DNA of 64,000 nt, taken from Hephaestia caeni. GTDB taxonomy: Bacteria; Pseudomonadota; Alphaproteobacteria; Sphingomonadales; Sphingomonadaceae. The DNA lies in NCBI RefSeq assembly GCF_003550065.1, contig NZ_QXDC01000002.1, positions 1,236,260 through 1,300,259 of the forward strand, in the 5' to 3' direction. The notes under the pieces are model-generated. The model searched no databases, had not been told where the DNA came from, and saw only the letters and a program-made list of their open reading frames with translations. Shown in pieces: positions 57,532 through 63,441 of the stretch; within the stretch, counting starts at the first letter, position 1, and each line of letters begins with the position of its first letter. The translations under genes were made by a program, and so were the position numbers.

Positions 57532-57618
57532 GGCAATGGATTCTGCCAGGCCGCTCCGGCCGAACCGCTCGCGATCGCGCGCTGATGATTCCTACCGGGT
57601 GACCAACCGTTAGGAATC
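57532..57618 (+). promoter_or_regulatory. fluoride riboswitch (crcB motif) 1, upstream of the XylD-like dehydratase
   Basis: Stem P1 GGCA...TGCC closes the loop ATGGATTC. An extra hairpin GGCCG-CTC-CGGCC follows, then GAACC, a GC-rich P3 and the hallmark GCTGATGATTCCTACC. The loop GGATTC can form the crcB pseudoknot with GATTCC (one mismatch). Expression platform: GATTCCTA (57587-57594) is the exact complement of TAGGAATC (57611-57618), which holds the ribosome-binding site of the gene starting at 57622. Ligand-bound pseudoknot and the masking hairpin use the same GATTCC strand, so fluoride should switch translation on. Confidence 0.93.
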
Positions 57619-57621
57619 GAG

Positions 57622-59439
57622 ATGTCCGCATCAAATTCGAACGACAAAGACGGCCGAACGACGAACCTGCGGTCACGCGCCTGGTTCGACAACCTCGCCA
57701 ATGTCGATATGACCGCGCTCTATCTGGAGAGATACCTCAACTATGGGCTTTCGCTCGACGAGCTGCGCTCGGGCAAGCCCATCATCGGCCTCGCGCAAAC
57801 GGGGAGCGATCTCAGCCCATGCAATCGCCATCACCTCGTTCTGGCTGAACGAGTCCGTGAAGGAATCCGTGACGCGGGTGGGATCTGCATCGAATTTCCG
57901 GTGCATCCGATCCAGGAGACCGGCAAGCGGCCGACCGCTGCACTCGACCGTAATCTCTCCTATCTCGGCCTAGTCGAGACACTTTACGGCTATCCTCTCG
58001 ATGGCGTGGTGCTCACCATCGGCTGCGATAAGACGGTGCCGGCGGCGTTGATGGCCGCAGCGACGGTCAACATTCCAGCGATCGCGCTGTCGGTCGGGCC
58101 GATGCTCAACGGCTGGCACAAGGGCGAGCGCACCGGATCAGGCACCATCGTCTGGAAGGCGCGCGAACTGCTCGCCAAAGGCGAGATCGACGATGCCGGC
58201 TTTATCGAGCTGGTCGCCTCCTCGGCGCCTTCGACGGGCTATTGTAACACGATGGGCACCGCCACGACGATGAACTCGCTGACCGAGGCTCTGGGGATGT
58301 CGTTGCCGGGCTCGGCTGCAATTCCTGCACCCTATCGAGATCGCCAGGAGGTAGCCTATCGGAGCGGCAAACGGATCGTCGATATGGTGCATGAGGATCT
58401 GAAGCCGTCGGACATTATGACGCGCGAGGCATTTCTCAACGCGATCGTGGTCAATTCGGCCATTGGCGGCTCGACCAATGCGCCGATCCATATTGCGGCA
58501 ATCGCACGGTTGACGGGCGTCGACCTGTCGCTTGCCGACTGGCAGGAGTACGGCCACCATGTGCCGTTGCTGGTCAACCTCCAGCCCGCTGGCGAATATC
58601 TCGGTGAGGATTATTACCATGCCGGTGGTGTCCCCGCGGTGGTGGCTCAGCTGATGCGCAAGGGCCTGATCCGCGAGGAAGCGATGACCGCCAATGGCAC
58701 GACCATCGGCGACAATTGTCGTAAAATCACGATCGAGGACCAGCGCGTCATTCGCCCGATCGACGATCCGCTGCGACCGGACGCCGGTTTCATGGTGATG
58801 GGCGGAAATCTCTTCGACGCAGCCATCATGAAGACCAGCGTCATTTCCGAAGACTTCCGCTCCCGCTATCTCTCCAATCCGGACGATCCGAATGCTTTCG
58901 AGGGCTCCGCGGTGGTGTTCGACGGACCGGAAGACTATCACGCTCATATCGACGATCCGGCTCTCGACATCACCACCGACACGATCATGTTCATGCGCGG
59001 CTGCGGCCCAATCGGCTATCCGGGCTCGGCCGAGGTCGTGAACATGCGAGCGCCGGCTTACCTCATTCGAGACGGTGTTCACGCACTTCCCTGTATCGGC
59101 GACGGGCGGCAGTCGGGCACCAGCGGCAGCCCCTCTATTCTCAATGTTGCGCCCGAAGCAGCGGCCGGAGGCAATCTCGCGCTGCTGCGCAATGGCGACC
59201 GCGTGCGCGTCGATCTCGCCAAAGGGCGTGTCGATATGCTGGTAGCCGAAGAAGAGATTACGGCACGGCGACGGCAACTCGAAGCCGATGGTGGTTATCG
59301 CTACCCCGAGTCACAAACGCCCTGGCAGGCCATCCAGCGGGCGTTGGTCGGTCAAATGGACACCGGCGCGATCCTGGAAGGATCGGAACGCTTCCAACGG
59401 ATCGCGCAGACGATGGGGATCCCGCGCGATAGCCATTGA
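57622..59439 (+). CDS. IlvD/Edd family dehydratase, XylD (xylonate dehydratase)-like
   Basis: 605 residues. Iron-sulfur, Mg2+-dependent dehydratase. WFDN..N.DMTALYLERYLNYG, ELRSGKPIIGLAQTGSD, SPCNRHH, LTIGCDKTVPA and STGYCNTMGTATTMNS give the three cluster cysteines and place it in the sugar-acid subgroup; from memory it is closest to Caulobacter XylD, which dehydrates D-xylonate. No other xylose or arabinose gene is nearby. It is directly controlled by fluoride riboswitch 1, an unexpected regulator. Codon use is less GC-extreme than in genes left of 55 kb, as expected for an acquired gene. Confidence 0.92.
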   Translation: MSASNSNDKDGRTTNLRSRAWFDNLANVDMTALYLERYLNYGLSLDELRSGKPIIGLAQTGSDLSPCNRHHLVLAERVREGIRDAGGICIEFPVHPIQETGKRPTAALDRNLSYLGLVETLYGYPLDGVVLTIGCDKTVPAALMAAATVNIPAIALSVGPMLNGWHKGERTGSGTIVWKARELLAKGEIDDAGFIELVASSAPSTGYCNTMGTATTMNSLTEALGMSLPGSAAIPAPYRDRQEVAYRSGKRIVDMVHEDLKPSDIMTREAFLNAIVVNSAIGGSTNAPIHIAAIARLTGVDLSLADWQEYGHHVPLLVNLQPAGEYLGEDYYHAGGVPAVVAQLMRKGLIREEAMTANGTTIGDNCRKITIEDQRVIRPIDDPLRPDAGFMVMGGNLFDAAIMKTSVISEDFRSRYLSNPDDPNAFEGSAVVFDGPEDYHAHIDDPALDITTDTIMFMRGCGPIGYPGSAEVVNMRAPAYLIRDGVHALPCIGDGRQSGTSGSPSILNVAPEAAAGGNLALLRNGDRVRVDLAKGRVDMLVAEEEITARRRQLEADGGYRYPESQTPWQAIQRALVGQMDTGAILEGSERFQRIAQTMGIPRDSH

Positions 59440-59471
59440 CCGACGCGCCGCCCGGCGACATCTTTAGACGC

Positions 59472-59552
59472 GGCAATGGACTCTGCCAGGCCCTAGTGGC
59501 CGAACTGCTCGCAAGGGCTGATGATTCCTACCCTGGTTCGATGGGAGGAATC
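59472..59552 (+). promoter_or_regulatory. fluoride riboswitch (crcB motif) 2, upstream of the membrane protein/ABC ATPase pair
   Basis: P1 GGCA...TGCC around ATGGACTC, hairpin AGGCC-CTAGT-GGCC, GAACT, P3 GCTC-GCAA-GGGC, then the hallmark TGATGATTCCTACC. The masking hairpin is GATTCCT (59523-59529) with AGGAATC (59546-59552), extended by CCC/GGG. The ribosome-binding site GGAGG lies 8 bases before a GTG (59557) that opens only a seven-codon frame, MSLRLQR, ending at 59580; the first longer gene starts 14 bases later. Confidence 0.93.
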
Positions 59553-59593
59553 ACGCGTGTCACTTCGGTTACAGCGTTGACGAGTCGGCCATT

Positions 59594-62113: not shown

Positions 62114-62157
62114 ACGGCGCCAAAAGTCGCATGGCATTGACGACGGGAACGCGGCAC

Positions 62158-62529
62158 TCAATCCGAAATGTTGGAGGCGCCCCCGAACGCCAGTCGCGTT
62201 CTGTCACGCGCTTGCAACCACCGCATCGTGTCGGCACGACTGCCCGAGACGAGCTTCGCCCAGCGCAGGTCCCGCAAGGGCTTGCGCTGGTCAGCGGTCC
62301 ACCAGAATTCCTTGACAACGAGTAATGTCCAACTCTTCGGCGGCCGCCTGACGACGGTGCAAGTCTCCATTGTGAAGCTGTGCGTTGCTCCTCCGAAGGT
62401 ATGACGCTCCCATTGCCAGTCGGTATCTGCAATCGACCAACGAGGCTTTTTCAATCCAGCCTGCGGATTGGCCTCGACCACCAGCGCGTCGAACAGTCGG
62501 AAGAAAGCGGGATCACCAAGACTCCTCAT
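62158..62529 (-). CDS. unknown 123-residue protein downstream of the HEAT-repeat gene
   Basis: 123 residues. Its ATG overlaps the stop of the HEAT-repeat gene (ATGA), which is the best evidence that it is real. It contains RLFDALVVEANPQAGLKKPR, WQWERHTFGGATHSF, WWTADQRKPLRDLRWAKLV, rich in Trp, Arg and Thr, with no signal peptide or membrane helix. No family recognised. It shares fluoride riboswitch 4 with the gene before it. Confidence 0.72.
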   Translation of the reverse strand: MRSLGDPAFFRLFDALVVEANPQAGLKKPRWSIADTDWQWERHTFGGATHSFTMETCTVVRRPPKSWTLLVVKEFWWTADQRKPLRDLRWAKLVSGSRADTMRWLQARDRTRLAFGGASNISD

Positions 62530-63362
62530 ACCGCTGTCCCGGCAACACGCTGGCGGATTGCGGCAATCTCTATCGCGAGGCGAATCTCGGCGCCGCGCTC
62601 GAGTTCGATGAGACGCGCACCTGCGCGACGTTGCAGCGACGTTGGCCCAAACCGCAGCACGACGCCCGAGGCCGCCGCCGCGATCATCGAATCCTCGTCG
62701 CCGATGAGTGCTTCGAGCGCCGGTCCAGCCCCGTCGGGCGCGCCGATGTCGAGCAGGACGGCGAGTGCGGCGTGCCGCTGGCGTCGGTGGGTCTCGGTGT
62801 CCGGGTCGATCTCATAGGCGATCGTCAGTAGCAGCGGCTGGGCCGGTGCTCCAATCGCCCGCAAGCCTGCTTCCGCCGCATTGCGGCTAACGTCCTCGGC
62901 GAGCCCAGCGGTCAGAGCTGGGATTGCTTCGGCCCGAACATAGCCGGCGAGCGCCTCGATCACGCCATCTAGATGCGGGCGACCGCAGCCAATCTCGATG
63001 AGCAAATCGAGCGCCCCCTCCGGACAGTGCCGGCCGAGCGCGCGCGCGGCGGCATTGACCGCCGCGTCCTCGCCGGCCCGTTCAACAGGGGAATCGGGAA
63101 AACGCGGGTTGCGGAGGAAATCGATCAGCAATTCGTCCCCGTGAAGCAATCCCAGGGCGCGGGCGGCGAGACAGCGTGGCTGAAAGATGCCGCTGGGTTC
63201 GCGTTCGCGTAGTAACGCACCCAGCGGCTCACGCGCCGCCGGGCCAAGCGCCACCACGGCCAGCATCGCTGCTTCGCCGTCGTGAAGATTGCGCAGCCTT
63301 CCGACGGCCGCTTCGATGTCTTGGTGATCGGTTGTCCGCGTCGATGAGACGGCATCGTACAT
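62526..63362 (-). CDS. HEAT-repeat protein under a fluoride riboswitch
   Basis: 278 residues from the ATG that lies 8 bases after TAGGAG; the in-frame ATG at 63401 falls inside the aptamer. Almost all-helical with repeated 30-residue units: AAMLAVVALGPAAREPLGALL, CLAARALGLLHGDELLIDFL, AVNAAARALGRHCPEGALDLL, and so on (each quoted in part), fitting HEAT/armadillo-like scaffolds such as PBS-lyase repeats. No catalytic motif and no signal peptide, so a cytoplasmic binding protein. First gene of a minus-strand pair. Confidence 0.85.
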   Translation of the reverse strand: MYDAVSSTRTTDHQDIEAAVGRLRNLHDGEAAMLAVVALGPAAREPLGALLREREPSGIFQPRCLAARALGLLHGDELLIDFLRNPRFPDSPVERAGEDAAVNAAARALGRHCPEGALDLLIEIGCGRPHLDGVIEALAGYVRAEAIPALTAGLAEDVSRNAAEAGLRAIGAPAQPLLLTIAYEIDPDTETHRRQRHAALAVLLDIGAPDGAGPALEALIGDEDSMIAAAASGVVLRFGPTSLQRRAGARLIELERGAEIRLAIEIAAIRQRVAGTAV

Positions 63363-63364
63363 TC

Positions 63365-63441
63365 GGTGATCTCCTACCGGGCAATGCTCAGCAGGAGTCA
63401 TCAGCCGGTGGGCCGGCGCTTGCGGAGGACTCCATCTCCGC
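63365..63441 (-). promoter_or_regulatory. fluoride riboswitch (crcB motif) 4, upstream of the HEAT-repeat gene
   Basis: Minus strand: P1 GCGGAG...CTCCGC around ATGGAGTC, linker AAGC, P3 GCCGG-CCCA-CCGGC, hallmark TGATGACTCCTGC. The pseudoknot GGAGTC/GACTCC is a perfect six pairs. CTCCT can alternatively pair with AGGAG in the TAGGAGATCACC ribosome-binding region, 8 bases before the ATG at 63362. Best-formed copy of the four. Confidence 0.94.

What the first reader, a model, noticed from the sequence alone, without database searches (positions are those of the whole stretch)
57532..63441. Four fluoride riboswitches in 6 kb driving a non-exporter gene set
Seen: four crcB-type aptamers (57532, 59472, 60615 on +; 63441 on -), each with P1, the AUGGNNUC loop, the GCUGAUGAYUCCURC tail and a possible pseudoknot. 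Known: this RNA class binds fluoride and normally controls crcB, CLC-F, enolase, pyrophosphatase or antiporters. Inference: the genes here (XylD-like dehydratase, MlaF-like ATPase with a tiny membrane partner, lipoprotein plus CaCA antiporter, HEAT-repeat protein plus unknown) form an undescribed fluoride-response module. No crcB or CLC-F gene is in view.
Basis: partly seen in the sequence, partly recalled or inferred. Interest (0 to 1): 0.93.

Follow-up and report, generated by a model that had tools for sequence, protein, structure and literature searches.

The report
Mobile island with thirteen fluoride riboswitches
Four RNA elements that match the known fluoride riboswitch family form the left end of a 37-kilobase cluster of thirteen such elements, on a likely mobile DNA island that would switch on a fluoride exporter together with second copies of enzymes, some of them known fluoride targets, and several protein families of unknown function.

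Summary
The four riboswitches are real: all reach the RF01734 gathering score. The "non-exporter module" is an effect of the window's edge. The same genome has 13 RF01734 matches, 12 over cut-off, all at C1:1293782-1330446. The last runs into crcB, followed by UspA, pyrophosphatase and enolase. The cluster lies in ~108 kb between a 50-bp tRNA-Arg duplication and the intact tRNA, with an integrase-like gene and conjugation genes; no empty site was found. Sphingobium estronivorans AXB has 16 matches and relatives of 22 of 42 island proteins in another order. The aptamer's 3' tail pairs with the Shine-Dalgarno region in 20 of 27 cases better than 95% of shuffles, so an ON switch at translation is likely. 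Second copies of crcB, enolase, pyrophosphatase, glutamine synthetase, the dehydratase and MlaF fit a fluoride-induced spare set. New are poorly known families tied to fluoride: HEAT relatives, found without regard to RNA, have a fluoride riboswitch in their locus in 16 of 18 cases. Multi-riboswitch genomes and fluoride islands were known. Binding, expression and resistance were not measured.

The parts
55294..55343 (-). 50-bp copy of the 3' part of tRNA-Arg(ACG); likely left attachment site of the element
   Evidence: 48 of 50 identical to the intact tRNA-Arg at C1:1399699-1399775, same orientation
55551..57035 (+). integrase-like gene (Arm-DNA-bind_3)
   Evidence: PF13356, 30.6 bits, cut-off 27; no NCBIfam match
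57523..57601 (+). fluoride riboswitch 1
   Evidence: RF01734 34.7 bits
57606..57619 (+). stretch complementary to the tail of riboswitch 1, overlaps the SD of the dehydratase gene
   Evidence: -17.0 kcal/mol, 0 of 200 shuffles as good
57622..59439 (+). IlvD/EDD-type sugar-acid dehydratase (PRK13017 group)
   Evidence: NF009560 1012 bits, cut-off 684; three Cys-motif positions aligned with its paralogs; 81% identical to a copy on C2
59463..59537 (+). fluoride riboswitch 2
   Evidence: RF01734 39.0 bits
59542..59554 (+). stretch complementary to the tail of riboswitch 2, contains GGAGGAAT
   Evidence: -16.7 kcal/mol, 4 of 200 shuffles as good
59594..59806 (+). TM70: 70-aa hydrophobic protein (two membrane spans by eye)
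   Evidence: ORF; 4 other relatives in the protein search and one on the LK11 plasmid, there too just before the ATPase
59797..60588 (+). MlaF-like ABC ATPase without MlaE/MlaD beside it
   Evidence: groups with two other riboswitch-locus copies
60607..60668 (+). fluoride riboswitch 3
   Evidence: RF01734 59.0 bits; tail/SD pairing weak, 149 of 200 shuffles as good
60718..61092 (+). 124-aa lipoprotein (lipobox LAGC by eye)
   Evidence: sequence; relative directly behind a riboswitch in S. estronivorans
61157..62113 (+). CaCA-type cation exchanger, likely in one transcript with the lipoprotein
   Evidence: PF01699 100.2 bits
62158..62529 (-). unk123: family of unknown function
   Evidence: 8 other proteins found; directly behind a riboswitch in 4 other loci; no PDB fold match at E <= 0.001
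62526..63362 (-). HEAT-repeat protein, 278 aa
   Evidence: riboswitch in 16 of 18 relatives' loci
63385..63448 (-). fluoride riboswitch 4
   Evidence: RF01734 49.2 bits; tail pairing 0 of 200 shuffles as good
63674..64000 (-). C-terminal part of a CorA-type Mg2+ transporter, likely the last gene of the next riboswitch transcript (C1:1302592, ZapE, iron permease, CorA)
   Evidence: PF01544 110.4 bits; full gene C1:1299933-1300883

Best explanation
The four RNA elements match the fluoride riboswitch family and are the left part of a cluster of thirteen such matches on a likely mobile, tRNA-Arg-associated element, where each would act as an ON switch that frees the ribosome-binding site when fluoride rises. 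Without fluoride the conserved 3' tail of the aptamer would pair with the Shine-Dalgarno region of the first gene; with fluoride bound the tail would be held in the aptamer's pseudoknot and translation would start. The genes likely do three jobs: export fluoride (CrcB); supply second copies of enzymes that fluoride inhibits at Mg2+ or phosphoryl-transfer sites (enolase, pyrophosphatase, and by inference glutamine synthetase, the dehydratase and ABC ATPases); and restore cation, proton and membrane balance (CorA, CaCA exchanger, complex-I-like membrane module, cyclopropane synthase). In the window this would mean a spare sugar-acid dehydratase, a spare MlaF-type ATPase that works with TM70 or the chromosomal MlaE, a lipoprotein with a cation exchanger, and a HEAT/unk123 pair that likely binds or protects other proteins. 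Shown: RNA matches, gene content, second copies, the tRNA repeat, conjugation genes, recurrence in other lineages, tail/SD complementarity. Inferred: fluoride binding, induction, mobility, resistance and the job of each protein.
For: Four RF01734 matches in the window, 13 in the genome, all at C1:1293782-1330446. crcB behind the last one. tRNA-Arg repeat and conjugation genes. S. estronivorans: 16 matches, relatives of 22 of 42 island proteins in shuffled order. HEAT loci with riboswitch 16 of 18. TM70-MlaF in a run with CLC/DUF190, enolase, UppP and CrcB behind RF01734 matches on the LK11 plasmid. Own tail/downstream pairs -17.3 against -13.5 kcal/mol for swapped pairs, 0 of 20,000 permutations as good; 20 of 27 beat 95% of shuffles. 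Second copies in the genome: crcB 2, enolase 2, PPase 2, GlnA 2, IlvD/EDD 7, MlaF. Extra copies of inhibited enzymes was the reading in E. cloacae FRM (passages of PMC5533749).
Against: No binding or expression data. Tail pairing of window riboswitch 3 is no better than shuffles (149 of 200), and 7 of 27 overall do not reach the 95% level; related sequences weaken the permutation test. One of the 13 matches is below cut-off (28.1 bits) and riboswitch 1 is only just above it. The dehydratase and the CaCA exchanger did not recur. TM70 has no clear relative in S. estronivorans (best E 0.73). The NRAMP gene and the second IlvD gene have no riboswitch in front. In 56 short riboswitch loci of other genomes no relative of the window's families was hit; the commonest neighbour hit was CrcB, in 21. 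Relatives do not show the empty site: the gene right of the tRNA is kept beside it in 3 of 4 relatives looked at, but the left-flank gene is not on the other side. Spare copies may simply be redundant genes; fluoride sensitivity of the copies is unknown.
Confidence: 0.72

Rival explanations
1. The island serves breakdown of organofluorine compounds: the riboswitches answer fluoride set free inside the cell, and genes such as the dehydratase belong to a catabolic route.
For: M. extorquens DM4, with at least 10 fluoride riboswitches, was suggested to consume fluorinated hydrocarbons (passage in PMC6785547). The second island is in an organism named for estrogen breakdown (name only).
Against: By eye no dehalogenase that acts on C-F bonds is in the gene list; the HAD protein matches Hydrolase_3, a group of phosphatases as a rule (recalled). 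No dedicated search for defluorinases was run. The dehydratase has three close paralogs of 59-81% elsewhere in the genome.
Confidence: 0.1
2. Many of the genes are passengers: riboswitch cassettes spread within the element by recombination and were caught in front of unrelated genes, so only crcB, enolase and PPase matter for fluoride.
For: The dehydratase, CaCA exchanger, ZapE and HAD protein are seen only here among the 22 loci. Aptamers of one element are much alike.
Against: HEAT (7 of 22 loci directly behind a riboswitch), unk123 (4), HyfC (6) and the MutS-like pair (3) recur with 30-79% divergence and changed order, which passengers would not. Tail and SD pair better within than between units, so the units were kept functional.
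Confidence: 0.14
3. A self-contained fluoride module without exporter.
For: Within 57.5-64 kb there is no crcB.
Against: Nine more riboswitches and crcB follow within 31 kb on the same stretch. HEAT and MlaF-like genes lie close to crcB in other records.
Confidence: 0.03

Closest known systems
Genomic island GI3 of Enterobacter cloacae FRM (PMC5533749; abstract and passages seen)
   Same: Island-borne, fluoride riboswitch, crcB with uspA, eno, ppaC and a phosphoglycerate mutase; extra copies of inhibited enzymes.
   Different: One riboswitch and six genes there; here 13 riboswitch matches, many more genes, a tRNA repeat and conjugation genes, and HEAT, unk123, TM70-MlaF.
Methylobacterium extorquens DM4 (one passage in PMC6785547; original 2012 paper not held)
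   Same: At least 10 fluoride riboswitches in one genome.
   Different: Its gene list and layout could not be checked here.
Sphingobium estronivorans AXB, contig NZ_LFCT01000007.1
   Same: 16 RF01734 matches, 14 on one contig; relatives of 22 of 42 island proteins.
   Different: Other order and strands; adds a CLC-like gene behind a riboswitch (by eye); no TM70, dehydratase of the window's type or CaCA relative found there.
Plasmid of Sphingomonas sp. LK11, NZ_CP013917.1
   Same: TM70-MlaF pair with UspA, enolase, UppP and CrcB; two RF01734 matches at the head.
   Different: One long run with CLC/DUF190 genes, not many small riboswitch units.
MlaFEDB lipid transporter
   Same: ATPase sequence, 51-55% identical to five MlaE-linked copies in the alignment.
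   Different: No MlaE or MlaD beside it; TM70 instead. The genome's only MlaE is on C3 with its own MlaF.

Membership tests
Fluoride riboswitch (RF01734) | covariance-model score at or above gathering, full-length match | tested here: met
   four of four in the window; 12 of 13 in the genome
Fluoride riboswitch (RF01734) | fluoride binding and fluoride-dependent expression | not testable with these tools
   needs in-line probing and reporters
Fluoride riboswitch (RF01734) | expression platform coupled to the aptamer tail | tested here: inconclusive
   tail/SD complementarity in 20 of 27 better than 95% of shuffles; window members 0, 4, 149, 0 of 200; no experiment
Fluoride-resistance genomic island | crcB with second copies of fluoride targets under a fluoride riboswitch | tested here: met
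Fluoride-resistance genomic island | raises fluoride tolerance | not testable with these tools
   no phenotype data
Integrative and conjugative element | integrase next to a tRNA attachment duplication | tested here: met
   integrase match is weak (30.6 bits, cut-off 27)
Integrative and conjugative element | conjugation genes between the repeats | tested here: met
   TraG-type coupling protein, T2SSE, TrbE-type (weak), TrbL, CagX; a relaxase was not searched for
Integrative and conjugative element | empty site in relatives | tested here: inconclusive
   gene right of the tRNA kept in 3 of 4 relatives; left flank not collinear
MlaFEDB transporter | ATPase with MlaE permease and MlaD in one locus | tested here: not met
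   no MlaE beside it; only MlaE of the genome is on C3
MlaFEDB transporter | score over the MlaF model cut-off (NF008809) | tested here: not met
   174.2 bits against 441
IlvD/EDD dehydratase (PRK13017 group) | score over the subfamily cut-off | tested here: met
   NF009560 1012.4 bits, cut-off 684
CrcB exporter (gene outside the window) | Pfam CRCB over cut-off | tested here: met
   102.8 bits, cut-off 32.9

The most novel reading that the evidence does not exclude
HEAT (278 aa), unk123 and the TM70-MlaF pair are dedicated, so far undescribed fluoride-tolerance families: HEAT and unk123 shield or re-activate enzymes blocked by Mg-fluoride, and TM70-MlaF is a minimal two-part ATPase that keeps lipid or ion traffic going while other ABC ATPases stall. 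They travel with a fluoride-induced spare set of phosphoryl-transfer enzymes on conjugative elements.
Probability: 0.3. Interest if true: 0.78.

Novelty: new variant of a known kind. Interest (0 to 1): 0.62.

Why it matters
A fluoride riboswitch is a good label for a fluoride-response gene. A stretch with thirteen of them, with a shuffled counterpart in another genus, gives a ready list of candidate fluoride targets and ties several unknown protein families to fluoride. It also suggests that a whole fluoride response can travel on one conjugation-type element. That makes testable what, beyond export, lets bacteria live with fluoride, and could help strains meant for organofluorine chemistry.

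Tried and rejected
Separate non-exporter module: given up once the genome search showed nine more riboswitch matches and crcB to the right. Fold search for unk123: 0 PDB matches at E <= 0.001; the best are weak actin-capping-protein matches with TM-scores near 0.36. Fold search for HEAT: 2 matches at E <= 0.001, both an engineered repeat protein, then generic solenoids. ARAGORN found no tRNA at 50-64 kb of the window; the tRNA fragment came out of the DNA search in the genus. Empty site: in 4 relatives fetched, the tRNA-Arg is intact and the gene right of the island's tRNA lies beside it in 3, but the left-flank GGDEF gene is not on the other side; in the two relatives that have it, it lies beyond that right-hand gene. 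So the empty site was not shown. The survey of 56 three-kb riboswitch loci is crude because the loci are not all turned the same way and some matches are below cut-off; it was used only for the island proteins hit. Papers: ten searches used. None found HEAT, dynamin or conjugative elements linked to fluoride riboswitches in the open-licence library, but the 2012 discovery paper is not held and the 2010 motif paper was not looked up, so their gene lists were not checked. One search returned unrelated fluoride papers only. One search gave two listings that I did not read.

Limits of counts: the large screens scored only 12-13 candidates per genome, so high counts there are capped; full counts come (150 candidates scored). 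The three draws overlap. L098 and L099 have nearly the same layout and may be one lineage. The 22 loci all carry a riboswitch and most were found through HEAT, so they are no random sample; left out of it were L099, L106 and L107 (the last two have no match), nine further riboswitch loci L077-L085 searched, and the 56 short loci. In L077-L085 no relative of HEAT, unk123, TM70, MlaF, the lipoprotein, the dehydratase or CaCA was hit at E 1e-8. In one search the EttA match in S. estronivorans and the IlvD match directly behind a riboswitch in the own genome are, by position, cross-matches to MlaF and to the window's dehydratase; the dehydratase match in S. estronivorans is one to IlvD. Only 5 of the 20 listed plasmid records were opened.
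Full report
WHAT IS THERE. Rfam's model RF01734 finds four full-length fluoride riboswitch aptamers in the window, all at or over the gathering score: 57523-57601 +, 59463-59537 +, 60607-60668 + and 63385-63448 -. Behind them lie an IlvD/EDD dehydratase of the PRK13017 group; a 70-aa protein (TM70) that overlaps an MlaF-like ABC ATPase; a 124-aa lipoprotein with a CaCA-type exchanger; and, on the other strand, a HEAT-repeat protein with a 123-aa unknown, unk123.

BEYOND THE WINDOW. 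The window is C1:1236260-1300259 of a 4.52-Mb genome in 10 contigs. That genome has 13 RF01734 matches, 12 over cut-off, all between C1:1293782 and C1:1330446 (150 of 839 candidates scored). The rightmost, 1330379-1330446 +, runs into crcB (CRCB 102.8 bits), followed by a 100-aa protein, UspA, pyrophosphatase, enolase, a phosphoglycerate-mutase-like protein, UppP and an MFS protein (names not or 87 are read by eye). Between window and crcB, riboswitches stand before ZapE (then an iron permease and CorA), a HAD hydrolase (then an EttA-like ABC-F protein), a MutS-like pair (then DUF211 and a membrane protein), glutamine synthetase, a 196-aa membrane protein, a complex-I-like membrane module, cyclopropane synthase and UspA. 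NRAMP and a second IlvD gene in the cluster have no riboswitch in front. The 'non-exporter gene set' is thus the left end of a set with an exporter.

THE ELEMENT. Left of an integrase-like gene (55551-57035) lies a 50-bp copy of the 3' part of tRNA-Arg(ACG), 55294-55343; the intact tRNA is at C1:1399699-1399775, same orientation, 96% identical over the 50 bp. The ~108 kb between hold a TraG-type coupling protein, a T2SSE ATPase, TrbE-like (weak), TrbL and CagX proteins and ArdC. This is the layout of an integrative and conjugative element. A relaxase was not searched for. The empty site could not be shown: in 4 relatives fetched the tRNA is intact, the gene right of it is kept in 3, and the left-flank gene is not on the other side.

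HOW RARE. Of 397 genomes drawn from the family 37 have a match at E <= 0.001, and only the own genome and G331 more than four. Of 385 from the class 27 do, none but the own more than three. Of 398 from the phylum 67 do, none but the own more than two. The draws overlap and at most 12-13 candidates were scored per genome. A full search gives G331 16 matches, all over cut-off, 14 on one contig.

THE SHUFFLED COUNTERPART. On that contig tblastn finds relatives of 22 of the 42 island proteins tried (a 23rd, the dehydratase, matches only the IlvD gene), best identities 32-79%, in another order and on other strands. The lipoprotein, the MlaF-like ATPase and HEAT each stand directly behind a riboswitch there. 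A set kept while its order is lost points to selection for the set under this RNA class.

THE UNKNOWN FAMILIES. A profile of 25 HEAT relatives, blind to RNA, was run against genomes of 84,980 species: 18 loci, in alphaproteobacteria and in MAGs labelled Binataceae, Deltaproteobacteria, Proteobacteria and Acidobacteriaceae. RF01734 reaches its gathering score in 16 of the 18 (for the S. estronivorans locus). The two without are contigs of about 3.5 kb. In the class screen the genomes other than the own hold 21 over-threshold places (384 genomes); at about 3 Mb each (my estimate) that is one per some 50 Mb, so chance would give almost none in the 203 kb scanned. HEAT is directly behind a riboswitch in 7 of the 22 loci and unk123 in 4 (L089, L109, L110, L112). 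TM70-MlaF lies on the Sphingomonas sp. LK11 plasmid in a run from CLC/DUF190 genes to enolase, UppP and CrcB, with RF01734 at its head. HEAT on a Methylocystis plasmid starts 16 nt behind a riboswitch, near enolase, CrcB and UspA. The three riboswitch-locus MlaF proteins group together (0.997) apart from five MlaE-linked ones, of which the Rhizorhabdus copy is nearest (8 sequences). Against this: in 56 short riboswitch loci of other genomes none of the window's families was hit, CrcB in 21; the dehydratase and CaCA did not recur.

STRUCTURE. unk123 is predicted as helix, five strands, helix (pLDDT 85.9), without a PDB match at E <= 0.001. HEAT is an all-helix solenoid (pLDDT 92.3) with generic solenoid matches. 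Neither tells a function.

SWITCH MECHANISM. For 27 riboswitches (13 here, 14 of the S. estronivorans contig) the last 17 nt of the aptamer were paired with the next 60 nt. Own pairs average -17.3 kcal/mol, swapped pairs -13.5; 0 of 20,000 permutations reach the own mean. 20 of 27 beat 95% of dinucleotide shuffles (8 of 13, 12 of 14), and 25 of 27 paired stretches hold an SD-like sequence by a loose pattern. Tails with UUCC face GGAA in 4 of 5, other tails in 1 of 22 (counted). The window's four give 0, 4, 149 and 0 of 200, so number 3 is not supported by energy, though its SD does face the tail. Relatedness weakens the permutation test. As the tail is part of the pseudoknot of the bound form (recalled), the two pairings would exclude each other: an ON switch at translation.

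WHY THESE GENES. The genome has 2 crcB, 2 enolase, 2 PPase, 2 GlnA and 7 IlvD/EDD genes, and a second MlaF beside its only MlaE. Identities to the nearest other copy compared: enolase 57%, PPase 56%, window dehydratase 81%, MlaF 57%, GlnA 88%. Enolase and PPase are fluoride targets (PMC11139923, passages), and extra copies was the reading in E. cloacae FRM (PMC5533749, passages). My extension, inferred: much of the list is Mg2+-dependent phosphoryl-transfer or lyase enzymes and NTPases that Mg-fluoride could block, plus transporters that restore cation and proton balance.

NOVELTY. Known: the RNA class; its links to exporters, antiporters, pyrophosphatase, enolase, HAD proteins and formate hydrogenlyase (PMC11139923); an island with one such operon (PMC5533749); a genome with at least ten such riboswitches (passage in PMC6785547). 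New as far as my searches go (open-licence papers only): 13 matches on a tRNA-associated conjugation-type element, its shuffled counterpart, and HEAT, unk123, TM70-MlaF and the lipoprotein as members. The 2010 and 2012 gene lists were not read, so single families may be listed there.

Noticed in passing
window 3818-3973 +: 6S RNA match, 47.9 bits against a gathering score of 46.4.
   Followed up: no
window 59557-59594: The first start codon behind the SD of riboswitch 2 (GTG 59557) opens a 7-codon frame that stops before the TM70 start (TTG 59594); TM70 may be read by re-initiation, or its start is elsewhere.
   Followed up: partly
L015 8518-10095 (-): Hydrogenase-large-subunit-like protein in the membrane module behind riboswitch C1:1323148: where NiFe enzymes have a CxxC (motif recalled) it reads SGVG, so it may be a complex-I-like ion pump rather than a hydrogenase.
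   Followed up: no
L015 16147-17802 (-); L098, L100-L102, L105, L109-L112: Dynamin-like GTPase family present in 12 of 22 riboswitch loci and within 6 kb behind a riboswitch in all 12.
   Followed up: partly
L014 19490-19786 (+); G331 C66:148100-148399: DUF211 protein next to a 194-aa membrane protein in both islands, 76% identical; directly behind a riboswitch in S. estronivorans.
   Followed up: no
C1:1305650 (-)/1306208 (+) and C1:1330195 (-)/1330379 (+): Back-to-back riboswitch pairs drive divergent genes; the same layout occurs in S. estronivorans (e.g. C66:137461 -/137622 +).
   Followed up: no
G000:C3:774788-775126 (-): Second crcB on a contig without any RF01734 match, likely the constitutive copy.
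   Followed up: no
L107 1462-3280; L111 10973-11083: Group II intron matches in two HEAT loci.
   Followed up: no
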